DNA of 64,000 nt from the NCBI GenBank assembly GCA_016647705.1, contig CM028326.1, positions 3,658,001 to 3,722,000 of the forward strand, read 5' to 3'. Positions 3,625 through 62,600 of the stretch are shown here, one piece after another. The notes beneath the pieces were generated by a model. That model had not been told where the DNA came from. It saw nothing but the letters and a program-made list of their open reading frames with translations, and did no database searches. Both the position numbers and the translations under genes were made by a program. The stretch's first letter is position 1. Every line of letters starts with the position of its first letter. Origin of the DNA: Eucommia ulmoides (taxonomy: Eukaryota > Streptophyta > Magnoliopsida > Garryales > Eucommiaceae).

Positions 3625-3700
<76 letters not shown>

Positions 3701-5454: not shown

Positions 5455-5705
5455 CATGCTTCGAAACGCTTCGTATGTGTAGGGTGGTCTTCGGCCTCTT
5501 TCAACCCCGAAGAAAGGATATCAAGGGGACCCAACATTGATGTGGGATTCAACACACTCAACATCAAATAAAATATCTAGCTCTGATATCACGTAGAAAC
5601 CTAAGAGACCTCACTCACTCTTAAAAAACACCTTGAGATGGGAGGATTGCCTTGGGTTTTATCTATAGCTCAAGATCAGGCAACACAAGCAATGTGACGT
5701 ACTCA
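5455..5705 (-). mobile_element. Decayed TRIM (LTR-retrotransposon in miniature), family alpha
   Basis: Fossil. It contains the inverted signature of the TRIM family seen intact at 48242-48667: ATGTGGGATTCAACAC, then a degenerate tRNA-Met primer-site complement (GCTCTGATATCA), then an LTR piece with the TATAGCTCAAGATCAGGCAACACAAGC-like segment. It has no coding capacity, as usual for TRIMs. Clearly old and broken, with many differences from the intact copies. The ends are approximate. Confidence 0.6.
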
Positions 5706-5809
5706 TTATGCACATTTAATTTGGATGCAGTCTATCACATCCTTCGGCATGTTCTAATCTCAGTCTCTTCTATGTGACTGGGTTGTAAGAAAGACTTCAC
5801 TTTTTTTTT

Positions 5810-6130
5810 TTTTTTAAGACTTCAATTTTTTTATTTTTTATTTTTGTTAAAACCTCGGCGAAGCTAGGGGGCTTATAATAATTAGAAATCAAGAATACAA
5901 CTCACAGAGGGGGAGCAAAACCTAACCTCTGAACCGAAAAACCAAACCCATAGACAAACTAACATGAGAAAATTTGTGCAAGACAAAATCAAAAAAGACT
6001 TATCTTTTAGCCTTCCGGATGTTCGGGAATCGAAGTTTATCTAGCCTTGAGCAACCCCGAACAAAAGACAGACATTCTGATTCAGTTGTTTTACACATAC
6101 CAATTATGCAAGGCCGAACGATGACATAAG
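5810..6130 (-). mobile_element. Probable 3' tail of a LINE/SINE-type element
   Basis: Read on the minus strand, the stretch ends with CCTCGGCGAAGCTAGGGGG read in reverse, followed by an A-rich tail (the T-runs at 5802-5850 on the plus strand). That short motif next to poly-A resembles the 3' end of plant non-LTR elements. No coding remnant was recognised, so the family is uncertain. Confidence 0.35.
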
Positions 6131-6723
6131 GTCGGCTTCTCGACCTCTTTTTTTTTTTTTTTTTTTTTAATTAAATGAATCTCGTGTTGTCATAGATATG
6201 GATGATCTTCTGGTCTATCGTTTGAAACTCTGGAGATAAAATCTTATTACAGGGCTCAAGGAATTGGAGTGAGATTGGCAGATTGCTTGTCCGGAAAAAG
6301 GAAGACTTGTGTGGAGTGAGAACAAAGGTGGAATTGTTTTTGCTCTATCGTATTGTCTTTAACGTCACTTGTTTTGGGAACATATTTGAGGAAACTCCAT
6401 TGGCTTGACCAGCTAAGATCCATTCGATGGACAGACTACTTTACGACGTGGACAAAAGTGGGAAGAAATAAAAAGTTTTGATACGCCCGTACTGTCTAAA
6501 TTGCACTTTGTACCCTTCAAGATTCTACTGGATTGCACTTTGTACTCTTAAATTTTTATTTGCTCGACATATTGCCTCTTGAAGTTTAATTCATATTTGC
6601 TTAGACATATTGTTTTGTAAAGTTTTAAATTTTATCGAATTTGGGGACCATTTTGTCATAAAGTAACATTTAATAAGATTTTAGTTAGAGATGTGACGGA
6701 AGAATTGATCCATTCGGTTTCTT

Positions 6724-7110
6724 AGGCCTCACTTGGTTACTATTTCCATTCCTTAATTTCTGTTTCCACTCTCAAACTTTTAGTATTAATGTAGAGAGAA
6801 ACATTTTGTAAAGATATTTTTATTCCCAAAATTTTGGGAGTAAGAATCTAAGAAACAAAAAATGTTGATTCTTATTCACTCACACAAAACTATTATCACT
6901 ACCATCTCGTCGGCCACCATATATTTAAAGAAGAAAAATACAGATGTTGCAAACAAATGTATTTCTTGCTTCTGTTCTCATAAATTAAAAGAAACAATTT
7001 TAGGGTAATAGCCATTATTAACATGTTTCTATTCTTGAAATATTCTAGAACGAAAATAAAATTTTAATATTAATTTATTGGAAGTAAAAACAAAAGAACA
7101 GAAACACTAA
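6724..7110. mobile_element. MITE, family C (copy 1)
   Basis: It begins GGCCTCACTTGGTTACTAT and ends in GAACAGAAACACTAA. The central tracts TCCCAAAATTTTGGGAGTA and AATGTTGATTCTTATTCAC reappear inverted near 42450-42520, so this is one of two copies in the window lying in opposite orientation. No open frame. The target duplication is not certain. Confidence 0.5.
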
Positions 7111-9530
7111 GGCCCCGTTCGATTAGGTGGCATTTGGTTAGTGTTCCTACTTTTCTCAACCCAACTGAAATGGATTGGGTTGGATTAAGTTGAGAATTTT
7201 GTTTCCTTCTGGGAACAAAATTGCGTTTGGTAATGACAGAATTTTATTTTGTGCTGGGAACAGAATCGCGTTTGGTAACGCATAATTATGTTTCCTTCTA
7301 TTAACAGAATTGTGTTTGGTAATGAGTAACTCTAAAATCAAAAGAAACACTCAATCCACCGAATTCAAACACCAGACACAAATCAACAGGATGGCTATCC
7401 CCATTAAGAGTCTCTAATTTTCTATTCAAACCAGAAATCAACATACCCAACACAAAGAACCCATCGTACTCTTCATCTTCTTTACTATTTTCAGCCTCAA
7501 ACACCTGCTATAGAAAATGGAACCTGAAAGATTTGTCGTTGTTTCAAAGCACGTCGGAATGGAACAAGGACACGATAAAGAAGTACGCAGTGGTGAAGAA
7601 GAAGAACGATGACGGTGTGAAGAATAGAGGTGACGACGAGAAGCAAGATCCTTCAAAATCACACACCCAACCTCAAAATTTCTGATTGGGATGAAAAGCA
7701 AGACGAATAGCTGAAGAAACACTCATAATTCCCCAATTTTCTCCACCCTAACAGACCCAGGATTTATCTCAACACTATTCAGCCACAAAACCTTGCAAAA
7801 ATCAAGTCGAAGACCATTACCCCCTCAAATCGATCCCGAACAATGCGGTCGTTCTTCATTCCATGGCTAAATCGTTTGTGAATCCTAAACCTAAATCGAT
7901 TTCGTAAAGATTCGAACATTTTTTTCGGAGCTAGGATTTCAATTTCGGTACAGAAACAGCAACAGAGGGGAGAGAAAGAGAGAGAAGATTCAAACATGGA
8001 TTTCGAAGCTAGGGTTTTGATGAACACTGACGCTTGGGAAGAAAAAGAGCAGCAACGAACACCTTAGCTTGGGAAGAAGAAAAGCAACGATGAACACCTT
8101 GGCTTGGGAAGAAGAAGAGCGGCGACAAAATAATGGAGGAGGAGAAGGATGATTGGGGATGTGAGAATAGAAAAGTAGAATAGATTCTCTCATTAAAAAC
8201 CTAATTAATACCGAGCGTGTCCTTATTTCGGGAAGAAAGGGTTGGGCACAAAAAAACAGCTATTTTTTGTTTCCACTTTCTTTAGCTTTTCAAAAAACAA
8301 TTCTCATTTTTGGATTAGGTTGGGTTTGGTTTTGTGTTTGCCAAACGCATTCCCAAAAATTAATTCCATAATTTTTGTGTTTCCAACCCAACCCAACCCA
8401 ACCCAAAAATTCTGGAATTGATTTTTGGAAACGCGTTTAGTAAACACAAAACTCAACCTAACCTAACCCAAAAATGAGAATTGTTTCTTGAAAAGCTAAA
8501 GAAAGTGGAAACAAAAAATAGTTGTTGTTTTTTTTTTTTTTGCCCAACCATTTCTTCATAAAATAAGGACATGCTTGGTATTAATTAGGTTTTTAATGAG
8601 AGCGCCAGTGTTCGTCGAAACCCTAGCTTTGAAATCCATGTTCGAATCTTCTCTCTTTCTCTTTCTCTCCCCTCTGTTGATGTTTCTGTTCCAAAATCGA
8701 AACCCTAGCTCCGAAAAAAAATGTTTGAATCTTTACGAAATTGATTTAGGTTTAGGATCCACGAACGATTTAGCCATGGAATGAAGAACAACCGCATTGT
8801 TTGGGATCTATTTGAGGGGGTAATGGTCTTCGACTGGATTTTTGCAAGGTTTTGGGGAGGAATAGTGTCGAAAAGAACCCTAGGTCTGTTAAGGCGGAGA
8901 AAATTAGGGAATTACGAGTGTTTCTTCAGCCATTTGTCTCGCTTTTCATCCCAATCAGAAATTTTGAGGTTGGGTATGTACGATTTTGAAGGATCTCGCT
9001 TCTCGTCATCATCTCTGTTTTTCACACCACCGTCGTTCTTCTTCTTCAGCACTGCGTACTTCTTTATCGTGTCCTTGTTCCCTTCCGACGTGCTATGAAA
9101 TAGCAACAAATCTTTCATGTTCTATTTTCTATAGCAGGTGTTTGAGGCTGAAAATAGTAAAGAAGATGAAGAGGACGATGGGTTCTTTGTGTTGGGTATG
9201 TTGATTTCTGGTTCGAATAGAAAATCAGAGACTCTTAATGGGGATAGTCATCTTGTTGATTTGTATCTGGTGTTTGAATTCGGTGGATTGAGTGCTTCTT
9301 TTGATTTTAGAGTTACTTATTACCAAACGCAATTATGTTCCCGGAAGGAAACAGAATTATGTGTTACCAAATGCGACTGTTCCCAGCACAAAATAAAATT
9401 TTGTCGTAACCAAATACAATTATGTTCTCATAAGAAAACAGAATTTTCAACTCAATCCAACCCAACTCATCCTAGTTGGGTTCAAAAAAGTGGGAACACT
9501 AACCAAACGCCATCTAACCAAATGCTACCT
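7111..9530. mobile_element. Foldback element with ~1.2-kb inverted arms
   Basis: The two halves are inverted copies around a centre near 8320-8400. Left TTTGGTTAGTGTTCC pairs with right GGAACACTAACCAAA, and the similarity runs through the arms (GTGTTTGAATTCGGTGGATT at about 9270 is the inverse of the sequence at about 7350). The outer ends are GGCCCCGTTCGATTAG and, inverted, GGTAGCATTTGGTTAG, flanked by TAA (7108-7110) and TAA (9531-9533), which would fit a PIF/Harbinger-like insertion; this assignment is tentative. Both arms carry the same coding-like tract (for example KDTIKKYAV, SKEDEEDDGFFVLGM), possibly captured from a host gene that I cannot name. Confidence 0.65.
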
Positions 9531-27289: not shown

Positions 27290-28564
27290 TCAATGGCGAG
27301 AATCGGAGGAAGCAGAGGACGGCTTGTCAGAGATGCCGTCGTGTTCCTCTTCGTCACCCTGGATCCGTGCTGGAATTTGGAACCCAGAGAATCCGCCTCC
27401 GGAGGCGAATCCGATGCCGGGCATGGAGTTTGGATGGATTGGAAGTGTCTGATAGTGTTGACGATGATGATCGGCGGCGGCGGCCATGGCCATCGCCGAT
27501 GGATCCATCCAAGCACGAACCGAAGGTGTGTTACTGGACTGAAGGGGTCCCCTCTGAGAAAACAAATGGTTTTGGCCGAACAACGGCTGCAGCGACGGCG
27601 GAGTCGACGGCAAATTAAACGCGAATCCTCCACCACCACCACCACCGGCGCCGGTGGTGTCTCCACCAGCATTCCAAGCTGCCATTCTCTGAAATCGGCC
27701 AATCTCGGCGGCCTGGCTGTCCGACCAGCCAGCGTTATCAAAACTCAACGGAGTGTTGCGGGAGAATAGGGCTTGCTCGCTGTGGCTTGTCGGGTCTTGG
27801 TGTTGGGTCTGTTGGTTATGGTGGTGGAGAAGAATCGGAGCTTGAAAAGACTGAAGAGAAAGCCTTAGATCTTGGCTCTGGCTGCTGGTTCTCGACAGCA
27901 AATCCGGCGGCGGGAAGCCGTGGAACTGGATACCGGAGGAATTTGGCTCCGTAGCAGCACCCATCGGGAAAAACGACTTTATGGTGTCGGCAATGGAGTC
28001 GGAGTCCAGCGACGGTGGCAAAAAGCTTTGATTATCAGTCGGATCCCTATTTCTCGTCATTGCCCGCTTATTTGAAGGCCCGGCGGCTGTTTCCGGCACA
28101 TCGTGGAGGTCGATTTGAATCTGATGCTGCTGCTGATCGATTTGAATCTGATGCTGCTGCTGATGCTGAAGCCGATGGTTTTCGTCATCCTGCGTTTGGC
28201 CTTCGTCGAAGTTCAAATTCGCCGTCGACCCAGTTGTGGGTTTCCACGCGGGTAGCTCCGCGAGTTCATCAATGGCTGGCTTGGCATTCTTGATGAGCCA
28301 ATCGACCGCTTTACTGGGTCGGTCGTAGCCCAGCCGGTCCTGGACGTCGTAGAACTGAATCGCGGTGTTGGCCGACAGCCGGACCCGGCGGTCCCTGGGC
28401 CCTTTCGCGGTGCAAACCTTGCTGTGCCGGTCTTTCCGCCCGGTGGACCGGACAATGTGACCGCCCTGGACTTCCACGATCTCTCCGCCGGAGTTTCTTA
28501 GCCCCAATCTCGACGTCGTCGGCTGTTGCTGGTAAGGATGCTGGTGATGAGCTGTATCTCCCAT
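27290..28564 (-). CDS. TCP4: TCP4-type (CIN class II) transcription factor
   Basis: A DNA-binding regulator that promotes the switch from leaf cell division to differentiation. It is a single exon of 424 residues, close to Arabidopsis TCP4 in length and layout. The start is the ATG giving MGDTAHHQ; upstream in-frame codons lack an [20 protein letters not shown] precedes the TCP domain (about residues 43-100): basic part [18 protein letters not shown], then helix-loop-helix with FYDVQDRLG and SKAVDWLI. Glutamine/histidine-rich stretches follow, then the CIN signatures [19 protein letters not shown] and [19 protein letters not shown], the RGPLQSS motif encoded at the miR319 site, PGIGFASGG and the ending [11 protein letters not shown]. 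The frame is intact. Regulation by miR319 is expected. Confidence 0.96.
27534..27554 (-). promoter_or_regulatory. miR319 target site in TCP4
   Basis: On the mRNA the site reads GAGGGGACCCCTTCAGTCCAG (27554 down to 27534; shown in parts GAGGGGACCC and CTTCAGTCCAG). It is the conserved miR319 complement of CIN-type TCP genes, encoding RGPLQSS. The seed part TTCAGTCC matches fully, with mismatches towards the other end, as in known targets. Confidence 0.9.
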
Positions 28565-29207
28565 TTTTTGTTCCAATCTCGCATATTCGGCGTTTTGCTC
28601 CAAAGAAGAGGAAGAAGGAAAGTACGAACGCTTCTTCGGCGGCGGCGGCGGCGGTGAATCTAGTCCTGCGTAAAGTAGCTGCTGCTGCTGCTGGTGGAGT
28701 TCTTGAGCTTGTTGAAAGTGGTGGCGGAGGCCATGGAAGGCTTGCTGCTGCTGCTGCTGGTGATGGTTTTCTTTCTCTGAAGGGTCTTGTTCCTCTTCTC
28801 CTCCTCCATCTCCTCCTACATTTCTCGAGCTTAAAACCTGGTTCTGGTTTTGGTTTTGGTTCTGGTTCTGATTCTGAAGAAGAAGAAGAAGATGATGATG
28901 ATGGTGATTCCTCTGAGGATCCAGACTCAGACCCTTGTTTTTTCCCCCTTCCAGCTTTTAATTGACACAACTTTTTCCTAGTGGGTTTCTTCCCTCTCAC
29001 TACTCTCTCTCCTCCCCTGCTTTTCACCCTCCTCTTGCTTCCTCCCCTGCCACCCCTCTGAAACTTGATTCTGCTTCTCCTTCTCTCTCCACTCCCAAAA
29101 CACCCTGCCATTCAACCCCCCAAATCCCATCACAAAAACCCCCAAACCAGGAAAAAAAGATTAAAACCCAAACTCCAAACCCTGCCTAACCCATCTCTCT
29201 CCTCTCT

Positions 29208-32345: not shown

Positions 32346-32624
32346 TTTGATTTCGATTGTGGTTTAGGTTTTATTGCTTGATAATTTATTGATTGTGATT
32401 TAGGGTTCGTTTTTAATTTATTGGATAAAATCGTTACCAAACGCAATTCTATTATCAGATTCAAAAAAAAATTATCGTTACTAAATGCGATTCTGTTTAA
32501 AAAAAAAATAGAATTCTTATTTCATCCTATTCTATTTCATCTTCATTTCACTACATGTCATAAGTACGAAACGGTTACCAAACGGTTCTAAATATTTTTT
32601 AAACCAAATAAAGCCCTAAAAATT

Positions 32625-32896
32625 GAGTTCTTAACCAAATAATTGTTTATTAAAAAAATAATTTCTGAAAACGGTATACTTCAAACTTATTTACGTGAGA
32701 GGTGTAAAACGCATTACCGAAATGCGTTTTTCAAAAAACGCATTTTCAAAATGCGTGTTTAAACAGTGGGTTTGAAAGTTAAAAACGCAATACCGATTTG
32801 CGTTTTTAAAAAACGCAAATCGGTTTTGCGTTTCTTAAAGCCCAAAAAAAAAAAAAAAAAAAAAAAGTAAAAACGCAGAAGCTTTCTGCGTTTTTC

Positions 32897-32928
<32 letters not shown>

Positions 32929-34272
32929 TTTAAAAAACGCAGAAGCTTTCTGCGTTTTTCCAAAAAAAAAAAAAAAAAAAAAAAAAACCGTTCGAAAAAC
33001 GCATAAAGCTTCTGCGTTTTTCAAAAAAAAAAAAAAAAAAAGATAAAAGAGAATAACGGAACGATCAGTGCGTTCTTCGGCAGTGTGCAAATCTTTGAAA
33101 GCTTTTCTTCTTTCTCTTTCTTTTTCTTTTTTTTTTTTTTTTTTTTTTTTTTTTCTTCAAGAACGTTTTTTTTTTTTTTTCGCCATTTTCCCACCATTTT
33201 CCTCATTCATATTTGGCTTAGAAGAACCATTTTTTGATTAGTATGAAATGATTCCAAAAAAAACAAAAATGCGCTTTTTTAAAAAAAAATTACACTAATT
33301 GAAATTAAAATAAAATTACATGTGAATATATAATATATTTTTACAAATTTATAATACATGTCGTCATTGACTTTCTATGTACCACACCCCCTACGTCTGA
33401 TGTTTCTCCGTTGCCGCCGTAAAGGAAGTGGAAGTTCTTCGGCGTCCTCCGTCTGGAGATGATTAACTTGAGTAATGTGTCCCAAGTCCATAGTAGATGG
33501 ATATGTTGGTTCCTCCACGATGGGCAACAAATATTCATCATTTCGCTCCCATGGGACTGGTGACACGCGTCTTCCAATTCCTCTGGGTACACCATGTGTC
33601 ACACGAGGAACAGATACTGAGCTCGATGATGGAACATCCATCATCGGGGTGACAAATGTGTTACCCACTGACCATCCGGAACTGACGCCCAGTTCGGTAC
33701 CATAATCTGAAAAGAAATTATCCATCCCGTAGTTAGATGGTCCGGCACTGGCGTCGTCATCCAACGGCTGATCTCGCGTATCCAACGGCGGACTCGGCAT
33801 CAGGTGTCCCGGACTCGGCATCTGGTGTCCCGGACTCGGCATCAGGTGTCCCGGACTAGACATTTGGTGTCCCGGACTAGGCATCTGGTGTGGCAACTGC
33901 CGACGATAGGCACGGGAACAAATGTCGCGCGATAAGTATGTAACCCGTTCAAAATCCTCTGGTTGTCTTGTTTCAATTGCAAGTTCACTCATTCGCATCA
34001 GGTTTGAAATATCGGGTTCCTGCAACATAAAGTTAATTACACCTAAGTAAATGAACATTATACAAAATAATAAATATATGTTCTAATTAAATTATACCTC
34101 TATCGTCGGACGACCTCCTACTGCATGATAGCCGAAGTTTGGTCGGTAAGATGGGTTCACTATGAACCGCCTTGTGACTCCCCAATACCAAGGCATGTAA
34201 TCATCAAATACATCTGTACCAACCTGAAGGTTACTTAAATCTGGTGGTCGCCGGCTATCCCATGCTCGTATA
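32625..34272. repeat. Left inverted arm of the Mutator-type palindrome
   Basis: Inverse of 35757-37404. The main differences seen are in A/T tract lengths plus a few substitutions. The similarity stops abruptly at 34272, after the inverse of TATACGAGC. It carries the minus-strand copy of the gene's 3' half. Confidence 0.88.
33375..34272 (-). pseudogene. Inverted partial copy of the plant-mobile-domain gene
   Basis: Minus-strand duplicate of the end of exon b (from about 34272) and all of the last exon (about 34019-33375). The predicted last-exon protein differs from the plus copy at only three positions or so among about 210. It lacks the start and the front half of the domain, so it cannot make the full protein by itself. 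Facing the plus copy, it would pair with that transcript over about 1.6 kb. Confidence 0.8.
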
Positions 34273-35320
34273 CCTGATCATTGGCAGATTACCAAGGTAC
34301 ATAAGAAGCCTTCGTGGGTACAGTTGATAATTTGAGATAGCACAGCAAGGGCCGAACTATATTTCGACTAGATTCCTAACCTAAGAACTCAGTGTATATA
34401 GGTATCCAGGTGGATTTAGGTTGTCCTATGATCACCATCTAGAATAGTAAGACAAATAATACATAAACAACCCAAAGGGGTGTCTAGACTAAAATAAACA
34501 TTACAATCACATGCTTAATTTAGGATATATAGGAAGCACATGTGGACTCTACCACATCCTTTGAACACTAAAGAGATAGTCCTGCACCTCAGTTAGAGCT
34601 GGGGAACATTATATTCAGTGTCTTCATTTAGAATCTGTAATAGGACTCACCACAACTAGAGCTGTGGCACATTATATCATATCTTTTCCGTAGAGAGTTT
34701 CTTCACATAAAACTCGCACTAATCACCAACTGTAAACTATAATTCCAAAAAATAAACAAGTATCACAGAGCCTTAGTCTACAACTGGGGAATATTTTATC
34801 CGAGGTCAAATTTTCCCCTCGGGAAGTTTTTTAGTCCTCGTTAGGTAGTCCTAGGTAGGATATGGCTAAGAAACTGAACTAGGTGTTGAGTTTTCCCAAG
34901 GGTCTTTGCCCGTGTGAAATCTCTCAGTCATTTTCAATCTTATATTGATATGACGACCCAAGAATCAGTTTCCCTAACCAAAACATGTTCCACCAAATAT
35001 TGATGTACTTTCCATGCTAGAACTACATGTGACCTGATTCTTATTAATTTGAGATATGTTGGAGAACCCTTTGGGTACAATTACAACCATGAGTCGATTG
35101 ATCGAGTGTCATCTTCTTTGCCTTCTACAGGATAGACCATGCATCATCCTTTAGGAATATATTGGAAGGGCTCGTATAGAGTTTCATCCTCACTGAGAGG
35201 GGACATGAGGTTCCCAGGCGCCCCTTGGGGGTCTCGGTACGTTATTATATAATAAAATGTTTAAGCAATTCAAATATTTCATTTCATGTAGTAATAATTA
35301 ATTTTTATGGCTGCATACAG

Positions 35321-36650
35321 TTGGAAAGTATCATTCAATTTAGATAGCGAGCCGATGCACGTATTGATTGTGTATCGTGATCAGTTAGATCGTCTACAAG
35401 ATTATGAGGTCAGTTACAGATTTACGTAAGATGTTACTAATGTTTTATATATGATTATATTTATTATTTAATTAATTTATTTGTATGTTCTTTGCAAGGT
35501 TATTTGGATGCCGTATCCAACTGATCTCTTGAACCAATTACCACAATATTGTCGTGATGGCGAAGAAATTTGGATGGCGTCTGTGCCCCTGATATGCTAC
35601 GAAATTGTAGAGTATCATTACCCCCATCGCACACTACGACAGTTTGGTTTTTGCCAAGGAATTCCCTGGCTGAGCGACACATATAAAGATATGCATTTCA
35701 ATAGCCGGAGGGGAAAATTTGGCACAGACTGGTCGATAGTGCACGGGGCACATATACGAGCATGGGATAGCCGGCGACCACCAGATTTAAGTAACCTTCA
35801 GGTTGGTACAGATGTATTTGATGATTACATGCCTTGGTATTGGGGAGTCACAAGGCGGTTCATAGTGAACCCATCTTACCGACCAAACTTCGGCTATCAT
35901 GCAGTAGGAGGTCGTCCGACGATAGAGGTATAATTTAATTAGAACATATATTTATTATTTTGTATAATGTTCATTTACTTAGGTGTAATTAACTTTATGT
36001 TGCAGGAACCCGATATTTCAAACCTGATGCGAATGAGTGAACTTGCAATTGAAACAAGACAACCAGAGGATTTTGAACGGGTTACATACTTATCGCGCGA
36101 CATTTGTTCCCGTGCCTATCGTCGGCAGTTGCCACACCAGATGCCTAGTCCGGGACACCAAATGTCTAGTCTGGGACACCTGATGCCGAGTCCGGGACAC
36201 CAGATGCCGAGTCCGGGACACCTGATGCCGAGTCCGCCGTTGGATACGCGAGATCAGCCGTTGGATGACGACGTCAGTGCCGGACCATCTAACTACGGGA
36301 TGGATAATTTCTTTTCAGATTATGGTACCGAACTGGGCGTCAGTTCCGGATGGTCAGTGGGTAACACATTTGTCACCCCGATGATGGATGTTCCATCATC
36401 GAGCTCAGTATCTGTTCCTCGTGTGACACATGGTGTACCCAGAGGAATTGGAAGACGCGTGTCACCAGTCCCATGGGAGCGAAATGATGAATATTTGTTG
36501 CCCATCGTGGAGGAACCAACATATCCATCTACTATGGACTTGGGACACATTACTCAAGTTGATCATCTCCAGACGGAGGACGCCGAAGAACTTCCACTTC
36601 CTTTACGGCGGCAACGGAGAAACATCAGACGTAGGGGGTGTGGTACATAG
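35321..36650 (+). CDS. Transposon-carried plant mobile domain (PMD, MAIN-like) protein, 5' end unresolved
   Basis: Three exons join in frame: 35321-35408, 35499-35927 and 36006-36650, with GT-AG introns. Signature parts of the aminotransferase-like plant mobile domain (the family of MAIN/MAIL1 and PP7 long-form homologues) are VYRDQLDRLQDYE, VIWMPYPTDLLNQLPQYCR, PLICYEIVEYHYP, LRQFGF, GTDWSIVHGAHIRAWDSRR and DDYMPWYWGVTRRF. The C-terminal part has five units of an octapeptide-like repeat (MPSPGHQ/L, MSS-GHL), then ends with a basic RRQRRNIRRRG. Earlier exons should lie within 34273-35320; a possible exon end is near 35237 (GGGTCTCGGTAC before GT), but I could not fix a start codon. Such genes occur as cargo of Mutator-type elements in plants; their role there is not known to me. 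Confidence 0.75.
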
Positions 36651-37404
36651 AAAGTCAATGACGACATGTATTATAAATTTGTAAAAATATATTATATATT
36701 CACATGTAATTTTATTTTAATTTCAATTAGTGTAATTTTTTTTTAAAAAAGCGCATTTTTGTTTTTTTTGGAATCATTTCATACTAATCAAAAAATGGTT
36801 CTTCTAAGCCAAATATGAATGAGGAAAATGGTGGGAAAATGGCGAAAAAAAAAAAAAAAAGAAAAAGAAAGAAGAAAAGCTTTCAAAGATTTGCACACTG
36901 CCGAAGAACGCACTGATCGTTCCGTTATTCTCTTTTATCTTTTTTTTTTTTTTTTTTTTTTGAAAAACGCAGAAGCTTTATGCGTTTTTCGAACGGGTTT
37001 TTTTTTTTTTTTTTTGGAAAAACGCAGAAAGCTTCTGCGTTTTTCAAACAAATTTTTTTTTTTTTTTTTTTTTTTTGAAAAACGCAGAAAGCTTCTGCGT
37101 TTTTCAAACAAATTTTATTTTATTTTTTTTGAAAAACGCAGAAAGCTTCTGCGTTTTTACTTTTTTTTTTTTTTTTTTTTTTTTTGGGCTTTAAGAAACG
37201 CAAAACCGATTTGCGTTTTTTAAAAACGCAAATCGGTATTGCGTTTTTAACTTTCACACCCACTGTTTAAACACGCATTTTGAAAATGCGTTTTTTGAAA
37301 AACGCATTTCGGTAATGCGTTTTACACCTCTCCCGTAAATAAGTTTGAAGTATACCGTTTTCAGAAATTATTTTTTTAATAAACAATTATTTGGTTAAGA
37401 ACTC
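35757..37404. repeat. Right inverted arm of the Mutator-type palindrome
   Basis: Inverse of 32625-34272. The outer 450 bp (about 36930-37340) contains repeated units GAAAAACGCAGAAAGCTTC-TGCGTTTTT separated by T tracts of 10-25 bases. Each unit is itself a short palindrome around AAGCTT. Confidence 0.88.
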
Positions 37405-37809
37405 CCTAAAAATTTGCTAGTTTTGGACAAACTGTACTTCGACGTTACATCCCTTTATTAGTACAATCTTTTCAGTGAATCAGTGTACTTATCCATTTTC
37501 ATCATGAATTAAGTGTTCCAAATTACACTAAAGGCCCCTAAACTAGTAATTTATTACAATAGATTTTCTATTTTTGGATTTAAACTCCTTTCCCTTTTCA
37601 ACTACTTTAAGTACTTTAATCTCATGATTACAACTGAACTACTTTTTTATTTCCCAAAAAGTAGCCCTTTTTTTTTTTACTTTTATTTTAAGTAATACAT
37701 ACACATGGGGTCAAGAACTCGAGGTGTGGTTTCATTGGTGGATTATGCATAGTTCAAAGTAATTAATCTTGATAACAAAAAATGACCCTAAATTTTATAA
37801 TTAATTTAA

Positions 37810-43309: not shown

Positions 43310-46300
43310 CGTTAGGGCGTTCCTTACTAGTGACACACTACATTTTCACCGCCCAGATGTAATGAATAATGAGAGAGGGTGGGCTACATAGGGCATCGCC
43401 CGGAAATGATGCGCTATGTTTTTGCCCGGATACGATGTCAATGAGAGAGGGTTGTTACATTATGGTGGATGGGTGTAGATAAATAAGTTAGTCCATGAAA
43501 ATAAGTTTAGGTTGACAACTTGGAATATAGGAACGTTGACGGGTAAGACCCGAGAATTGGTGGACATAATTTGTAGAAGGAAGATTAATATTCTATGCTT
43601 ACAGAAACTAAGTGGGTTTGAGAGAGGTCTCGAAAAATTGAGAGTACGAGATATAAATTATAGTATACAGGGAAGGATAAACATAGGAATGAGGTGGGTA
43701 TCATGGTAGATAGGAATTTAAAGGATAACGTTGTTGATATTAGGAAAGTAGGCGATAGGATGATGGTTATGAAGTTGGTAATTGGAGAAGAGGTGATTAA
43801 CGTTATTAGTATGTATGCTCCTTAAGTTGGACTACAAGAAAATGTTAAACGAGAATTTTGGGAGAAGATGAACGAAATCGTTTAAAGTATACCTAACCAA
43901 GAAAATTTATTTATTAGGGGAGACTTGAATGGACATTTCGGGAAGGAAATGGAGACTTTCGAGAAAGTACATGGTGGTTATGGATTTAGGGAGAAGAATG
44001 CAATGGGTGAGATGATTTTAGATTTTGCTATGACGTGTGATTTAATTTTTCTAAATACATGTTTCAGGAAGAGGGATGAACACCTATCACATTTAAGAGT
44101 GATCAGAGGAATAACCGGATAGATTTTGTCCTTACTAGAACGAGTGATCATTTAATATGTAAGGACTGTAAATCTTACCCGGAGAAAGTATTACTACCCA
44201 ACATAGACTAATGGTCATTGATCTGAAGTTTCAGGGGTGAAAACGGGAGTCTAAGATAAGTAGGCATGTAAAGATACATTTGAGAGATCTAAGAGATGAA
44301 AAGATGGAGTTGTTTAAGGATAAAATTAGCAAGGATGAGTTATAAAAGAGACATGAGGATGTGAACAAAATGTGGATTGATATGGTTAGTCGTATTAAAG
44401 ATATATAAAGAAAAGTTTTAGGAGTTTGTAGAGGAGGAGGACCATAATATAAAAAAAGTTGATGGTGGAATGAAGAGGTCCAAAAAGTCGTTCGGGACAA
44501 AAAAAATAACTTATAAAGAATGGAAAAAATATCGAAGTCGGGAGAGTTTGGAGAAATATAAACATGCAAAAACGGAAGTGAGAAAAGTAATTAAATAATC
44601 AAAATTTAGGGTGTATGATAATTTGTATCAAAAGTTAGATACAATAGAGGGGGAGAGAAAGATATTTAAACTTGTTAGGCAACGTAAACGAAAGACTAGA
44701 GATATTGAAAATGTCAGATGCATCAAAGACATTAATGAAAAAGTATTGGTGAAGGATGAGAAAATTATAGAACGATGGGGGAGTTATTTTTATAATTTAT
44801 TTGATGAGAATGACGTTGGAAAATCTAGACTAGAGTTGCTTAATTTATCTTCAGATAAGATTTATAGGTTTCATAGAAAAATTTAGGATTTCGGAGATTA
44901 GAATAGAACCAAGGAAGATGAGAATTGGAAAAGCAGTAGGGTCAGATGAAATCCCTATAGTGGTGTGGAAAAGTTTGGGAGATATTGAGAGAGAGTGGTT
45001 GACTAGACTTTTCAATAATATTTTGAGGACTAAAAGAATGTTTGACGATTGGAGGAGGAGTATCGTAGTGCCCATCTATAAAAATAAAGGAGATGTTAAA
45101 AGTTGCACGAACTATCAGGATATAAAACTTATGAGTTATACTATGAAAGTTTGGGAGAGAGTGATAGAATATAGAATAAGACATGAAACGAGTATAAAAG
45201 AGAACCAATTTGGATTTATACACAACCGACCAACCACTGAAACTATTTATTTACTCAGGAGATTAATAAAAAAATATAGAGTAAAGAAGAGAGATTTATA
45301 TATGGTATTTGTGGACTTGAAAAAAGCTTATGATCGAGTACCCATAGAAGTTTTGTGGTGGTTGCTAGAAAAGAAAAATGTATCCAATGTGTATATCAAG
45401 GTAATTAAGGATATGTATGAAAGTATAGTCACTAGTGTTCAAACATGAGGAGGCGTACTTGTGCATTTCCTATTAATATAAGCTTACATTAAGGATCATT
45501 TTTAAGTTCTTATCTTTGTTCTGGTGATGGATGAGCTCACAAAACATATTCAAGATGGAGTAGCTTGAAATATGTTGTTTGCGAATGATATCGTATTAGT
45601 TAACGAAAGTATAATAGGTCTTAATACTAAGTTAGAAAGATGGAAAGAAACTTTAGAGTCTAAAGGTTTGAAGGTTAGCAGAAGTAAGGCGAAATACATG
45701 CATTGCAATTTTAGTAATGCCTGGAGAGATGGTAGGGCGGTCAAAATTAGAGATGATGAGGTGCCGAAGGCTGATCATTTTAGATATTTAGGTTCAATGA
45801 TTTAGAGCAATAGCGAAATTAAGGAGAATATTATGCACAGAGTCAAGATAGATTGGTTAAAGTAGAGAAGTGCAGTTGGGGTGATTTGTGATCGTAGAAT
45901 TCCGTTGAAACTTAAAGAAAAATTCTACAAAACTGTTATAAAACCAGCGCTTCTGTATAATTCGGAATATTGAGTGACAAAAACGAATCATGTTCAGAAA
46001 ATTGTGGTGACAAAAATGAGGATATTGCGGTGGATGAGTGGAAAGACGAAAATAGATAAAATTAAAAATAAAACTACTAGAGAATTTAAGAATAACACCA
46101 ATCGAAGAGAAAATTAGAGAAAATCGTTTTCGATGGATTAGACATGTGCATAGAAGACCCATAGAAGCACTAGTGAGAAAATGTGATATAGTTTAAGTGT
46201 AGGGGACTAATAGAAGGAGAGGTAGACCTAAGAAAACGTTGGACAAGACTATTAGAAATGATTTAATGACATTAAATATGACAGAGAAGATGACCCTTGT

Positions 46301-53600: not shown

Positions 53601-56600
53601 GGGCCTCTGAAACAAAATTAGGAATAGAAACAGAGGATAGAGAAACAACAAACGAGGAGTACAAAGGACATATGTGTGCATACGAAACAAAATTAGAAAT
53701 AAGATGGGTAGTACGTGTGCGCTTACCTTTCTATATGGCAATGGGCATGTCTAGGTCAGAGACGGATAGGTCGGCTGGAGAAGAATCTAAGGACACAGAG
53801 TCGATGGGCGCAACAGCGGAGGGGGCCTTCTGGCGACGAGAGTAGACCTGCAAAGGAGCTGAAGAACGACTAGGCGGGATAGGATCCGGAGTAGAGGAAA
53901 ATAGTGTAGGGTTTGGTACACTTGGCAAGGGAAGCGTAACATCCAAAATGTCTCGAGAGGAAGGGGCAGAAAAGTAAGGGGCAGACTCAAAGAATGTAAC
54001 ATCCGCACACACAAACAAGCGACGTAATGATGAATTATAACAACGATAACCCTTTTGTGTGCGAGAATAATCGAGGAAGACACATTTTAAAGCACGGGGA
54101 TCTAATTTGTCCCTGCCAGGAGTCAATTGATGAACAAAAGAAACACACCCAAATATTCGAGGAGGTAAACTAAATAAGGGAGAACGAGGAAAAAGAATGG
54201 AATGGGGAACCTTGCCGTTGAAGGTAGAGGACGGCATCTTGTTGATTAAGAAGCAGGCGGTAAGAACCGCATCACTCCAGAAATGTTTGGGAACGTTCAT
54301 CTCAAAAAGAAGAGTACGGGCTACTTCTAGGAGATGTCGATTCTTACGCTCAGTAACTACATTTTGTTGCGGTGTGTGAGGACAAGAAGACTGATACAAG
54401 ATACCAAAGTGTGACATAAATGAAGTAAATGGCTGAGAAAAGTATTCTTGAGCATTATCACTGCGAAGAATACGAACTAGTACATTAAATCGAGTTTTAA
54501 TTTCAGCATAAAACGCACGAAAAATCGAGAATAATTCTGAATGATCTTTCATTAAATAAAGCCAAGTAACTCTGGAAAAATCATCCACAAATGTCACAAA
54601 ATAATGAAAACCTAATGTAGAAGTAACACGAAAAGGACCCCAAACATCTGAATGAACTAAACTAAACGGACTCGATGCTCGAACATGAGTTAGGGAAGCA
54701 AATGAAATACGATGATACTTACCTAATTGACAAGACTCACACTCTAACGAAAACAAATGACGCAAATTAGGAACAAGTAACTTGAGGTTGCCAAGGCAGG
54801 GATGACCAAGGCGACAATGGATCTGGTGAGCGGAGGCAACAACAGGGCAGGTAGTTGGTAGGATAGCAGGACTCTCTTCATGGTCATCAAAGTAATATAG
54901 GCCATTTTCCTCACGCCCGATGCCAATCGTCTTCCGCGTCCTCAAATTCTGGAGAATGACAAAATTAGGAAAAAATGAGACAGAACAATTAAGGTGTTTG
55001 GTAAGCTTACTGACTAACATCAAATTAAAAGAAAACGAAAAAATATACAAGACAGAGGATAGAGATAAGGAGGGTAAGGGTGCCATTGTGCCAATGCTAC
55101 GGATAGGGACAGTGGAACCATTAACAACTGTAACAGGAGACAACGAAGGAGATGACTGAATATGTGTAAAGAGGGAAGAAGAAGAAGTACCTGACATGTG
55201 ATCAGTGGCAGCAAAATCTATGACCCAGGGTGTAGGAAGGGAAAGACGAATTGAAAGATAGGCAGTAGAAGTACCTCGTTGAGCTAAAGAAGCAATGGGA
55301 AGAGATGCCTGTTGGGATGCCTTATACTAAAGGAATTGAGCATATTCATCATCAGAGATGTCTTTGGCCGCCTGAGATTTTGGAATAGTAGGAGTATTTG
55401 GATAAGATGTCACTGCATTGGCGAATTTGGGAGGACGGCTAACTAAATCCCAACATGTTTCTCGAGTATGATTATCCTTTCCGCAAAAAGAGCACTGTCG
55501 ATGTGAGCCACGACCGCGACCACTACGTCTACCCCGAGGGCCACCACCACGAGAGAAACCACCACCACCACGAGAAAAACCACCAAGACCACCACTGAGT
55601 GAAATACCACGATCTCGTGTAGGAATCTGAGTAACAAGCGCCGAATGCTCAGATGACGCAGACGAACTCAAGCCAGACACATTATCCTTGGTAGTGCTAC
55701 GCGAGACGAGAGAATACATTTCGGTGATAGTCGGAAGAGTAGCACTGGAAAGAATCTGAGATCGGACTGGTTCAAATTCTGGGAGTAATCCAGTCAAGAA
55801 CTTTATGACAGCCATCTGCTCACGTTGCTTTTGTATTTCTTTCAGATCGATCGTCATCGGTAGGATAATATTCATCTCTTCATAGAGGCTGTTGAATGTG
55901 ACAAAATAATCTGTAATGGATTGCGTGCCTTGCTGAAATTGGAAGTACTCTATCGATAAATCCTACATCCTGGTGAAATTACTGGAATATAATATACGAA
56001 GATACTCCCATATATCTTTGCACGTATCTAAATGAGTACATAGATTAGCAACTTGAGGCTCCATCGAATTCCACAACGATGCTACAATTTGCACATCAGC
56101 CTGAATCCAGTCGTCATACTTTTTATCATCTGTTGCCGGAGCGGATTCCGTGAAGTGACGATGTTTTCCTTGTCCAGTGAGGGTTATTTTCACAGCCTTA
56201 GACCAATTTAAATAATTGGTTCTGTTCAACTTACGGGTTGTTAATGGTTGAGGTGTAGCCATCGACATTAGTACTCTCCAATACAACAACTAAAAAACAA
56301 CTTGCACAAGGGAAACAAACCAACAATATAAACAACTGTAGGGCTTAAACGAAGAACATGAGAATCAGAACAATACTCACGAACATCTGTAGGGCTGTCT
56401 TACGAACAATAACCAGAAGCAACAGCGGCAGTCTCAAGTCAGCGCAATTGAAGGCCGGCAAAGGTCCGGCGACGTCAGAGGAGATGACGGTGACGTGGAC
56501 GACGTCAATAGTGGACAGCGAGTAGGAGATCTGGTTCGCGATGATGGTACAACTCGATTTTCGGGTCGATGATGGTTCGCGATGATGATGGCAGCTCGGA

Positions 56601-59600
56601 ATGGCCTGGGTGACGGTCAGCGAGGCTTGGAATAGCCTGGGCGACGATGGCGAGGGGCGGATCTGAGTGTGTTGAGCGGTGGCGGCGGGGGCTTGTGGGC
56701 TGCTAGGGTTTTAGTTTTTTTTTTTTTTTTTCCTTATGAACAGTTGGCAGGGGAAAAGAGAAGAATTTTTTTTTTGGTTTGAACAGATCTATGGAATTAA
56801 TCTCCCATAACCTGCTCAGGATACCATGTTAAAGTAAAATGGTGATATGAAAAGAACGAGAAGACTTAACTATTGTGTTAGTCTCTCCCACCATTTATAA
56901 TAAGAATTAGGAAACCATACAAGAAATCTTAAGTAATAGAAAAGACATAAATACTCTTTAACATAATAGATAGTATACATAGACAGTTAGACACCCACAA
57001 GTTTGATAGGCCCTAGGTTCTAGAAGGAAGGGTAGTTTAGGTAGATCCCATTAGTAGTTGTTATTAGGCATCTTTCTGTTATAGGTTATTTTACAAATTC
57101 TGTTAAGGGGAGAGAAGGAGGAGAATATAAGGAGATAGCTGAGGGAGAATAAGGTATTGAGAAATTGTGAATTGTTTGTACTGAGCGTATCTCATTCTGG
57201 GAGAGATTCAAACCTCTCAAAAGCTTGGTTTATCTTTTTATCTTTCAGTTGTTTAATAAAAGCTCATCATCATTGAATTTCAATCATAAAATACCATAGC
57301 TACTAATCTGGTTCATATCAGAGTTTTACTACGATCACATTTCTCGTTGAATTTTAGAATTAATGTGCAAATACTGGCACACATTATTTATGCAACTGAA
57401 TCAGTTCGTTATATTCTTCATTTACATTCTTTTACAGTCACTGTTGCTATTGAAATTTGAGAAGCGTGCTCAGATATGTAGCTTTATATTCTATAGGTGT
57501 TGATAGAAGCAGTTGAAAATCACATGCCGCAAGTAATTGTAATTGATGAAATTGGCACAAAGCTCGAAGCAATGGCTGCGAGCACAATTGCACAACGTGG
57601 AATTCAGCTAGTTGCTACTGCTCATGGAGTGACTATCGAAAATTTGGTGATGAATCCATCTCTAGAAATGCTTGTTGGAGGAGTTCAGGTGAATCAATCA
57701 TTTCTGTAATTATTAATGAGTAGTTGAAGTTTCTGTTTGGAACATCGGACTAAAATTGAAGCCTTGGAATTGGCATTGTGAATTAACACACGTAAATTTT
57801 TACACTTTTACATACGTTCATTTCTAATTTCATTTATGAAGCTCCAATTCCAAGAAACCAAGCGCTACCTTAGGAATGAATATATGCAAAAATTCTTAGA
57901 TTTTTATATGCCTTCATTTCTAATTCCAATTCTGGAACTCCAATTCCTTGAAACCAAAGGCTACCCAAGATTTTTTACTTGAAGGCTTTTTTCACGTATG
58001 AGGCATTGCTATGCCTTTTCGGTATTAGTCACAGTTATGCATCCATTTGTCAGAGTGTGACGCTTGGAGATGAAGAGGCAAGCAGGAGAGGGGTTCAGAA
58101 AACAGTGCTGGAGAGGAAAGGACCATCAACTTTCAATTGTGGAGTGGAAATAATTTCGAAGACTGAGCTGCGAATTCATCAGAGTTTAGAAGCAACTGTT
58201 GATGCTATCCTTTGTGGTTAGTCTCTCTCTCTGTCATCATTTCTGTTATCCCTATGGTTTTTGACTTCTGACATTATTGTCTCACATGCTCTTGCTTTTA
58301 TGTTGAGGAAGGTCGTTTCCCTCCTTTTGAAGTCCGAAAAACAAATCCGGGACGAGAAGACGAAACATTACATGCTGAACCAGCCATTCACGGTTCGTCA
58401 TACGAAACAAATGAGAATATTGAAGAAATTCTACAGAAGAACGATGTGAATTCTAACCATAATGAATTCGTTTCTGAATTACCTCCAAGCATGGAAGAGA
58501 GTTCTTCTAAAGAAGGCCGAGGCCTTTGTTTATTTCTTTATGGGGTAAGACATCATCGCCACTAGTTAACAGATTTATGTAATTTAACTTGTCTTATACT
58601 TCCGTGGCTAAGTTGTCAGTTGTCTCAAAAATTTTAGCTTCTTATACTTGTTAGAATCCCACATCGAATTTGTGAAGCTTCTGATAGAATACTCTCAACA
58701 AATTGATAAAATCAACAATTAAAATAGGGAACTAAATGATAAAGGAAGTCTGAATGGATATTACTCAACGATTGAATGAAAAATTACAGTAAAAACAGTA
58801 ACTGAAGCTAGGAATTCGAGAGCCTAGTCTCTCCCTTTTGATCTCACTATTTCGATGCTTTTCTCTTCCCTCCCATGGCTATTTATAGATGAATCAGCAA
58901 CTAACGCTCATCAAATAGCTAACAAACTCAACTGACTAACTATATAACAAACTCAACCATTTCCAGCTCATCACAACTAACTCTCTGCTAACAGAAATTG
59001 GAAGTTTCTTCTGCAACTAATTCTTCATCCCTTTTCTCAGCCTTTGCCGCACATATAAGTGCTTTTAATCAATGGTCTATCAATACCGCCCCCTTGGAAT
59101 CTCACCTTGTTCTCAAGGTGAAAGGTGGGAAATTGTGCATTGAGAAACTCAAACTCTTCCCATGATGTCTCAAAATCCGGAAGATGCTTCCACTTAATCA
59201 ATACCTCCAACTTTTCTTGAGCATTGTAGCGTAATCCGTTCACTGCTACTGGCTCCACTTGCCACTCCATCTCTTTCGTAAGAACCTCAGGGATGGGTTG
59301 CACCCTGGTAGTCACGCGTACTGCTTTCTTCAATATTGAAATATGAAATACTGGATGAATGGAGGTAGTAGAAGGCAAGTCCAACTTATATGCCACAGCG
59401 CCAACTCGAGTCAGCACTTGATAAGGGCCGAAAAACTTAGGAGATAACTTCTCATTGGCTTTTCTTGCCAAAGACTTGTGACGATAAGGATGCAGCTTGA
59501 TATAGACCCAATCTCCAATCTCAAATTCGACTTTGCGGCGCTTCTTATCCGCATAGTCCTTCATGCGTTTCTGAGAGCGATTCAAATGAAATTTAAGTTC

Positions 59601-62600
59601 TTCTAAAATGTGATCCCGAACTTGTAATTGAGCATCTACCTCGGACATAAGAGTAGAACCCACTTCAAAACGTAACAACGGTGGTGGATCACGACGATAT
59701 AGAACGCAGAATGGAGTAGTGTGCATGGAAAAATGGAATGAAGTATTGTACCAATACTCCGCCCAAGGTAACCATGTAACCCACTGCTTGGGTTTGTCTC
59801 CTGCGAAACACCTTAAATAGGTCTCAATGCTCCGATTGACGACTTCAGTTTGTCCATCTGTTTGCAGGTGATAAGCGGTGCTGTGTTTCAATGATGTACC
59901 CTGTAAACGGAATAGCTCCGTCCAAAATTTGCTTAGAATCACCTTATCACGATCCGAAACAAATGGAGCGGGGTACCCCATGTAAGCGGATAATCTCTTT
60001 CACGAATACCGCTGCAACATCTGGAGCACTAAAAGGGTGTTTAAGTGGGATAAAGTGAGCGTATTTCGACAGTCGGTCAACCACCACAAATAAACAATTG
60101 AACCCATTGGATTTAGGCGGCCCCCTTCCACAAAGTCCATGGATAAGTCTTCAAAAACTCGTTCCGGAATTGGTAGTGGTTGCAGTAATCCTGTAGGACT
60201 TAGAGCCACATGTTTATTCCGTTGAGAAATTGAGCATTCGGCCACATAACGCTGCACTTGTTTCCTCATACCCGCCAATAAACATCTCGGGACAGCCGCT
60301 GGAATGTCCGTAAGACCCCAAAATGTCCTCCCATTTTGCCCCCATGATATTCTGCTAGCAATGTTGGAACGAGAGTGGATGTTGACGGAATCACCATCCG
60401 TCCTTTGTATAATAAAATGCCGTGCGGTATGCTGTAGTCCGGAAATGAGTCTGATCCTTGTAATAGCTGCTGTTTGATCGGACCATAAAGGATCTCGGAG
60501 TCAACGGCGTTGTTCAGCTCATTGTCTTGTACACAACATGAAACAGTGAGGACAACCAACTCACAACCTTCTTCTCTCCGTGATAACGCATCAGCTGCTT
60601 TGTTCTTAGGACTAGGTCGGTATTCGATGTCAAAATTGTAACCCCACAGCTTCATAACCCATTTCTGATGCTCAAAATTGTAACCCCACAGCTTCGTAAC
60701 CCATTTCTGATGCTCGTTAGATACCAGTTGTTGGTCAAGCAAAAACCGCAAACTTCTTTGGTTGGTACGCACAATGAACTTGCGTCCCAACAGATAAGGT
60801 CGCCACTTTTGGATCGCTAAAACAATAGCCATCAGCTCGCACTCGTATACTGACTTAGATCGATCCCGTTGGTTAAGGGCTTGACTAAAGAATGCGATTG
60901 GTCTCTGGTTTTGCATTAATACCGCGCCGATGCCAAAACCCGAAGCGTTCGTTTCCACCACAAACGGTTGATGGAAATTAGGAAGAGCTAATACGGGAAC
61001 CGTTGTCATTGCCACCTTCAAAGCCTCGAATGGTTTTTGTGCTTCCTCATTCCACCCAAAACGATCCTTCTTGAGTTGATTGGTGAGTGGTGCCGCTATG
61101 TGCCCATAATTGTGGACAAATTTCCGATAGTACCTCGTTAAACCCAAGAATCCTCGTAGGGCTTTTAGGTTAGGAGGGATTGGCTATTCCACCATCGCTT
61201 GGATCTTCTTAGGGTCTGCTGCTACCCCTGTAGCCGATACAATGTGACCCAAGTATTCTAACTCATGCTGTCCAAAAATGCATTTCTTGAGGTTAACCAC
61301 CAATGGATGAATCTTCATCGTCTCCAAAACCGTCCTCAAGTGTTCCAGATGATCCTCCATAGATTTACTATACACCAAAATGTCATCAAAGAATACCAAT
61401 ACAAACTTTCGTAAGTGTTGTTTAAATATCTCATTCATCAAAGCTTGAAAAGTCGCCGGGGCATTCATTAACCCAAACGGCATCATCAAGAACTCGTAGT
61501 GGCCTTCATGAGTCCTGAAGGCTGTCTTAGGCACATCTCGAGGGCTCACTCTAATTTGGTGATATCTCGACTTGAGATCCAATTTAGAAAAGAATTGTGC
61601 TCCATATAGTTCATCTAAGAGCTCCTCTATCACCGGCATTGGAAATTTGTCTGGAACAGTCACTCGATTCAAAGCTCTATAATTAACACAAAATCTCCAG
61701 CTACCATCTTTCTTCTTTACCAAAATCACGGGACTCGAAAATGGGCTATGGCTCGGCTGTATGATACCGACTGACAGCATGTCACCGACCAAACGCTTGA
61801 TCTCATCTTTTTGCACCTGTGGATACCGGTATGGTCTCACACTTACTGGTTCAACGCCTTCCTTCAAAATGATACAATGATCTCGCTCCCGTTGAGGGGG
61901 TAGTCCCCTCGGCTCCTTCAGCACTTCCGGATATTCTTGTAGCAGTTTGTTGACAGCTTGGGACACCTCCATGGCTAATTCTTCTTCTCCATTCCCTGAC
62001 ACTAAGGTCCCCAATTCAAGCAAATACCCAGATCCTTCATGCTGCACAGTACGTATTATTGCCTTGAGCGATATCTCCCTTTAGAATCAGCAACTCACTG
62101 GTTCAACGCCTGCACAATACGCTTGTTATATGATTAGCCTAGTCTCTCCCTTTTGATCTCACTATTTCGATGCTTTTATCTTCCCTCCCCATGGCTATTT
62201 ATAGATGAATCAGCAACTAATGATCATCAAATAGCTAACAAACTCAACTGACTAATCATATAACAAACTCAACCATTTCCAACTCATCACAACTAACTCT
62301 CTGCTAACAGAAATTGGAAGTTTCTCCTGCAACTAATTCTTCATCCCTTTTCTCAGTCTTTGCCGCACATAAGTGCTTTTAATCAATGGTCTATCAGCTT
62401 CTCACAGTGGTCTATATATGGAAAGTGCGCTACTTGACACTATATGATTTTAAGTTGGAACCTCCTAAGATTGCGTTAGAGTTAGGTTTAGGAAGTCTCG
62501 TTTGTTTGTCCCCGATTGTTTGAATTTTTGTTTAGTCTCTTCTGTTTTTTGATCGTATCATGTGCAAAACGGGGTTGCACGTAAGGGTGGGTGTTAGTAT

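What the first reader, a model, noticed from the sequence alone, without database searches (positions are those of the whole stretch)
32625..37404. Young Mutator-type palindrome carrying a plant-mobile-domain gene and its own inverted 3' copy
Seen: 10-bp target duplication, GAGTTCTTAACC termini, about 1.65-kb near-identical inverted arms, and a MAIN-like PMD gene whose 3' half exists head-to-head in both arms. Known: inverted duplicates of Mutator genes (Mu killer in maize) can make hairpin RNA that silences the family in trans. Inference: this element, if transcribed through the centre, would silence PMD-carrying relatives, or possibly a host MAIN/MAIL1 gene. A non-autonomous element whose cargo is a domain gene plus its own antisense is unusual.
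Basis: partly seen in the sequence, partly recalled or inferred. Interest (0 to 1): 0.75.

Follow-up and report, generated by a model that had tools for sequence, protein, structure and literature searches.

The report
Mobile palindrome made from a transposon's end
A plant jumping gene whose second half was copied back-to-back onto itself, one of several such mirror-image derivatives in the same genome; if read into RNA it would fold into a hairpin that could shut down its own family, but that silencing is not shown.

Summary
In detail: a 4,780-bp palindromic element with a perfect 10-bp target duplication, GAGTTCTTAACC ends and ~1.65-kb inverted arms. The interpretation needs correction. The PMD gene is not cargo: the genome holds ~7.1-kb full-length relatives carrying a MULE transposase gene followed by a separate PMD gene. 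The window element is two copies of their 3' end, back to back, around a 919-bp fragment whose only close full-length match lies elsewhere on the same contig. A shorter palindrome on another contig shares arm-specific mutations and has its own target duplication, so the lineage has moved, which argues against an assembly artefact. Palindromes arose repeatedly in this family: 23 loci, at least six sets of breakpoints, one amplified to 17 copies, one made of the transposase end as in Mu killer. Trans-silencing is possible but untested. Six PMD loci outside the family share no 15-mer with the paired coding arm, so no host target was found. Palindromes and full-length copies both moved recently, so any silencing is incomplete. 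New variant of a known kind.

The parts
32615..32624 (.). left target-site duplication CCTAAAAATT
   Evidence: identical to 37405-37414
32625..34272 (-). left arm: inverted copy of the full-length element's 3' end (reference copy L012 positions 7228 to 5520)
32625..33146 (-). left terminal region: TIR of the 3' type with AAACGCA/TGCGTTT modules and A/T runs
33375..34019 (-). PMD gene exon 5, left copy
   Evidence: coordinates mirrored from the right copy
34098..34272 (-). end of PMD exon 4, left copy (5' truncated at the breakpoint)
34273..35191 (.). filler: 919-bp fragment of a dispersed repeat, 98% identical to G000:C2:38975128-38976045 (-); no other match longer than 500 bp exceeds 82%
35192..37404 (+). 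right arm plus right-only part: full-length element 3' end (L012 positions 4959-7228)
35192..35236 (+). remnant of PMD exon 2
35321..35408 (+). PMD exon 3, only in the right copy
35499..35927 (+). PMD exon 4, right copy (PF10536 match)
36006..36650 (+). PMD exon 5, right copy, with GHQMPSP-type repeats; ends at TAG
36879..37404 (+). right terminal region: 3'-type TIR
37405..37414 (.). right target-site duplication CCTAAAAATT

Best explanation
It is a non-autonomous, palindromic derivative of a young two-gene MULE (transposase, then a stand-alone PMD gene). Inferred step 1: during repair or replication of a family copy, synthesis ran through the 3' end, switched template to a repeat on the same contig (919-bp filler), then switched to a family copy's 3' end in reverse. 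That gave two 3'-type ends back to back and removed the 5' end and transposase. Step 2, movement, is supported for the lineage: two insertion sites with perfect, different TSDs share arm-specific mutations. Inferred step 3: the full-length relatives' transposase moves it by its two 3'-type TIRs. Inferred, unproven step 4: a transcript crossing the centre would be a hairpin of ~1.6-kb arms and ~1.5-kb loop, whose siRNAs would match the family's PMD 3' half and TIRs.
For: Seven full-length relatives of 7,040-7,228 bp with the same termini, one base differing at one end of L013; MULE transposase, DBD, SWIM and PMD domains in L012; PMD gene model in L010 with own ATG, GT/AG introns and 677 aa. Over the 7 copies the inner left arm is 97.7-99.8% identical and the right-only part 35286-35752 99.1-100%; whole parts 95.7 and 96.5% to L012, coordinates 7228-5520 and 4959-7228. 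Filler matches one locus at 98% over its length. L042 (C7:34.69 Mb) is a 2,794-bp palindrome with TSD TCAGAAGAAG and shares 36274 T (right) and 36561 A and 37333 A (left) with the window palindrome, alleles seen in 0 of 7 full-length copies. The 17-copy short palindrome carries a 22-bp insert at its join that repeats element sequence from near the PMD stop, and 11 of the 13 fetched copies have perfect 9-10-bp TSDs.
Against: The filler differs from its only close match at 15 of 919 positions (1.6%), four times the arm divergence (0.39%), so the matched locus may not be the true donor, or the arms were homogenised later. Only 1 of 7 full-length copies has a perfect TSD. Four of the six palindrome types show no direct TSD or lack a terminus. 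No intact empty site was found. The mechanism is read from junctions only.
Confidence: 0.85

Rival explanations
1. A natural Mu killer analogue: the palindrome is transcribed through its centre and its hairpin siRNAs silence full-length relatives in trans.
For: Plan: two TIRs from one end plus an inverted partial gene, as described for Mu killer (PMC3440606, abstract and passages). Paired 21-mers of the window arms cover 79-98% of the 894-bp PMD 3' part and 59-83% of the first 260 bp of the 5' TIR in the 7 full-length copies. A transposase-end palindrome also exists (L051).
Against: No RNA or methylation data. Loop of ~1.5 kb. Short palindromes (closest pair 0.1% apart) and full-length copies (0.6-1.9% over the same columns) both moved recently. 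Arm 21-mers cover none of the transposase coding region (0.00). Private mutations are C-to-T type in 84 of 113, but CG, CHG and CHH rates are alike, so no clear methylation signature.
Confidence: 0.2
2. Inert repair by-product that hitch-hikes: the palindrome moves because it has two good ends and has no regulatory effect.
For: Window join occurs once in the genome; several other palindromes are single and more diverged (L041, arms 1.3% apart outside runs; L051 and L053, 92.5 and 82% self-complementary; L052, about 96%); the most successful one has lost nearly all coding sequence.
Against: Does not by itself explain why one palindrome reached 17 copies, though small size may suffice.
Confidence: 0.65
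3. Assembly artefact: a false inverted join.
For: Inverted duplications are a known assembly error type (recalled); reads could not be examined.
Against: Perfect TSD; filler at the apex; unequal extent of the two sides; sibling L042 at another locus with its own TSD and shared arm-specific alleles.
Confidence: 0.03
4. Pack-MULE carrying a captured host PMD gene.
For: PMD-C genes are said to have been captured twice by MULEs (PMC5418596, passages).
Against: The PMD gene is at the same place in the 7 full-length copies examined; none of 6 PMD loci tested outside the family is close in sequence. An ancient capture by the family is not excluded.
Confidence: 0.04

Closest known systems
Mu killer (Muk), maize
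   Same: Rearranged MULE with two TIRs from the same end and an inverted partial gene (PMC3440606, abstract and passages)
   Different: Here the 3' end with the PMD gene, not the transposase end; a filler separates the arms; the lineage is at two sites and another palindrome of the family reaches 17 copies; no silencing shown. L051 in the same genome is the transposase-end version.
PMD-carrying MULEs (rice, other grasses, Amborella)
   Same: MULE with a plant mobile domain (PMC5418596, passages)
   Different: Those passages speak of fusion proteins with the transposase; here PMD is a separate gene with its own ATG about 0.2 kb after the transposase stop
FARE/foldback and MuTAnT-type MULEs
   Same: Long palindromic TIRs in MULEs (PMC4486113, passages)
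   Different: Here the inverted parts include coding exons of the family's own gene
Pack-TIR formation by gap filling and template switching
   Same: Filler between TIRs from the same chromosome or contig (PMC8277862, passages); the L042 join has a 2-bp overlap
   Different: The filler's match is about 35 Mb away (that paper reports most within 15 kb), it is repeat DNA, and the second switch inverts the element's own end

Membership tests
MULE (TIR type) non-autonomous element | 9-10-bp TSD | tested here: met
MULE (TIR type) non-autonomous element | TIRs shared with an element encoding a MULE transposase | tested here: met
MULE (TIR type) non-autonomous element | mobilised by that transposase | not testable with these tools
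   only two-site evidence of movement
Mu killer type silencer | both TIRs from one end of the autonomous element | tested here: met
   both arms match the 3' end
Mu killer type silencer | inverted duplication of the transposase gene | tested here: not met
   PMD, not transposase; met by L051
Mu killer type silencer | transcript giving siRNAs and dominant trans-silencing | not testable with these tools
   no RNA data
Pack-MULE | captured host gene fragment between the TIRs | tested here: not met
   PMD is the family's own gene; filler is a dispersed repeat
Foldback element | long modular palindromic TIRs making up most of the element | tested here: inconclusive
   outer ~520 bp modular; the rest of the arms is coding sequence

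The most novel reading that the evidence does not exclude
Palindromisation is a recurrent outcome in this MULE family, and the palindromes are mobile, self-spreading sources of double-stranded RNA against their own family: a set of natural Mu killer-like loci, some directed at the PMD gene and TIR and at least one at the transposase, that spread with the family's own transposase while restraining it.
Probability: 0.15. Interest if true: 0.8.

Novelty: new variant of a known kind. Interest (0 to 1): 0.5.

Why it matters
Mu killer is the usual example of a transposon silenced by its own rearranged copy. One genome with palindromes of several ages and origins, next to young full-length copies, lets one ask with small-RNA data how often such copies arise, whether they silence, and whether silencers can themselves spread. 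The two-gene structure also offers a MULE with a separate PMD gene for testing what PMD does for a transposon.

Tried and rejected
Purifying selection: raw pN/pS of 0.28-0.41 for three PMD exons and 0.33 and 0.72 for the two transposase frames looked like constraint, but after correcting for the mutation spectrum it is weak (PMD omega 0.57, P 0.045; transposase 0.81, P 0.19; with 8 more diverged PMD copies and 6 of the 7 full-length ones, exon 4 omega 0.56, P 0.027, exon 5 0.77, P 0.13). Not used as support.

RdDM signature from mutation contexts: rates alike in CG, CHG and CHH; could be the general C-to-T bias. Not used.

Palindromes only at the 3' end: suggested by 0 inverted pairs within 10 kb in the 40 scored matches of each (1,360 and 284 candidates), then disproved by the 5'-end 45-mer. 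Pattern lists were capped: at the 3' end 133 of 201 sites seen, at the 5' end 100 of 193, so more palindromes may exist. The 5' pair on C7 at 45.20/45.22 Mb, 19.4 kb apart, and the convergent 3' pair there, 9.1 kb apart, were not counted as palindromes.

PDB search with PMD exon 4: no match at E <= 0.01. Empty site: of 40 scored matches (156 candidates) only the window's own two flanks matched fully; the other 38 match the left ~60-145 bp at 72-85%, a repeat. Papers: I saw listings, abstracts' beginnings and passages only, no whole text.

Full report
Observation. The element at 32625-37404 is real. The centre, 34273-35752, is not symmetric.

The parent element. A search of the window's own genome (947 Mb, 391 contigs) with the left end found many relatives (40 of 849 candidates scored). 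Among the loci fetched, seven are full-length elements of 7,040-7,228 bp with the same termini, one base differing at one end of L013 (L009, L010, L012, L013, L015, L017, L018). In L012 they encode a MULE transposase (PF10551 E 2.9e-16, PF03108 E 4.7e-7, SWIM E 1.1e-7) and PMD (PF10536 E 2.2e-61 and 8.8e-18) in the same direction. In L010 a gene model drawn by eye gives PMD its own ATG, four introns with GT and AG borders, and 677 aa; in L012 the PMD ATG lies 183 bp after the transposase stop. Some copies carry stops or frameshifts (L012, L013, L017). PMD sits at the same place in all seven, so it is a resident second gene, not cargo.

What the window element is. Against L012 the left arm is positions 7228-5520 reversed and the right part is 4959-7228. 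The 919-bp piece between them is absent from the full-length copies and matches one locus, C2:38975128-38976045 (-), at 98%; no other match longer than 500 bp exceeds 82%, though short pieces reach 90%. That locus is part of a dispersed repeat (1,472 candidates, 40 scored). The filler differs from it at 15 of 919 positions, more than the arms differ from each other (5 of 1,298). This is unexplained: faster decay of repeat DNA, arm conversion or a closer unseen donor could each account for it. At 37257 the two arms carry alleles that both segregate among full-length copies, which fits two different source copies.

It moves. The window join occurs once in the genome, but L042 on C7 is a 2,794-bp palindrome with its own perfect TSD, TCAGAAGAAG. 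It shares with the window palindrome 36274 T on the right arm and 36561 A and 37333 A on the left arm, alleles seen in 0 of 7 full-length copies. L042 fits a shortened sibling: one deletion across the apex would give its join, but it lacks the filler, so gain of the filler by the window copy after the split is not excluded. Between the two, 3 of 1,294 (right arms) and 2 of 742 (left arms) positions differ, so they separated recently.

It is not alone. A 1.59-1.84-kb palindrome of 3' ends, with a 22-bp insert at its join that repeats element sequence near the PMD stop, occurs 17 times; the 45-mer join, allowed 3 mismatches, matched 17 sites, each with none, and no control hits. I fetched 13 of 17 whole; 11 of 13 have perfect 9-10-bp TSDs. 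It is nearer to L017 than to L012, unlike the window lineage, so it probably arose separately. Its own arms differ at 3-10 of 435-462 positions within an element. Two further 3'-end palindromes are L041 (C4, left terminus missing; arms 95.0% with gaps, 1.3% apart outside runs) and L053 (C11, both termini, no direct TSD, 82% self-complementary). At the 5' end, L051 (C14) is a palindrome of the transposase end, 92.5% over 4.3 kb, with variant termini and no TSD seen, and L052 (C3) a larger inverted duplication, arms about 96%, whose termini were not found in the stretch fetched. In total 23 loci and at least six sets of breakpoints: short (17), window plus L042 (2), L041, L053, L051, L052. The listed sites gave 21 head-to-head pairs in 133 of 201 3'-end sites, and 2 counted inward pairs in 100 of 193 5'-end sites; with the rest unseen, these are lower bounds.

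Does it silence? A transcript crossing the centre would fold back over ~1.6 kb. Paired 21-mers of the arms would match 79-98% of the 894-bp PMD 3' part, 90-96% of the last 240 bp of the 3' TIR and 59-83% of the first 260 bp of the 5' TIR, but none of the transposase coding region, in the 7 full-length copies (homopolymer-like 21-mers left out). Whether any such RNA exists cannot be tested here. Against efficient silencing, the closest short palindromes differ by 0.1% (median 1.0% over pairs of 13) and the 7 full-length copies by 0.6-1.9% over the same columns, so the family kept moving alongside its palindromes. For a host target, six PMD loci outside the family (C9, C4, C2, C6, C11, C3; found, chosen by me) share no exact 15-mer with the paired coding arm 35753-36656 (longest 10-13 nt), while two family copies at 92-93% share 470-522 21-mers. 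Other PMD loci (143 matches listed, 117 of 2,460 candidates scored) were not tested, the TIR part was not tested, and which of the six are MAIN/MAIL orthologues was not determined.

Comparison. Mu killer is described as an internally deleted, partly duplicated MuDR with two TIRs from the mudrA end; a long hairpin had been proposed, and that paper links silencing to short antisense transcripts instead (PMC3440606, abstract and passages). The window element has that plan at the other end. Its origin resembles the gap-filling and fork-switching models for Pack-TIRs (PMC8277862, passages). PMD in MULEs is known, as transposase fusions in grasses and Amborella (PMC5418596, passages); a separate tandem gene was not seen in the listings and passages. 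I found no report of a many-origin palindrome set in the listings of searches, which cover open-licence papers only.

Verdict. Structure, parentage and mobility are well supported. The silencing role is open. The finding is more interesting as a recurrent process than as a single element.

Noticed in passing
L022 (C9:20.90 Mb) and L024 (C9:22.09 Mb), flanks of the short palindromes: Neither has its own TSD, but their 3' flanks are reverse complements (ATCATAGATG / CATCTATGAT), as expected for a ~1.2-Mb inversion by reversed-ends transposition or exchange between copies. The 5' flanks do not match each other.
   Followed up: partly
L009 (C7:4.62 Mb) and L018 (C7:4.67 Mb), 5' flanks of full-length elements: CAACATGCA before L009 and its reverse complement before L018, 44 kb apart; both lack a normal TSD. 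Possibly another element-mediated inversion; the 3' flanks do not match each other.
   Followed up: no
7 fetched full-length copies: Only 1 of 7 has a perfect TSD, 2 have one mismatch and 4 have none by the test used, although interiors are about 99% identical.
   Followed up: partly
G000:C4:2507473-2604771: Cluster of nine PMD matches on one strand, six of them covering the whole profile in open frames of 784-909 aa, probably host genes; the one tested shares no 15-mer with the paired coding arm.
   Followed up: partly
window 27290-29111 (-): Long open frame that looks like a TCP transcription factor, left of the element and reading away from it (name recalled, not searched).
   Followed up: no
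window 1186-4404 (+), 44834-45448, 53731-55962 and 59037-62080: NB-ARC-LRR-like gene in two frames, a LINE-like reverse transcriptase piece, a Copia-like and a Gypsy-like element (names recalled from the translations).
   Followed up: no
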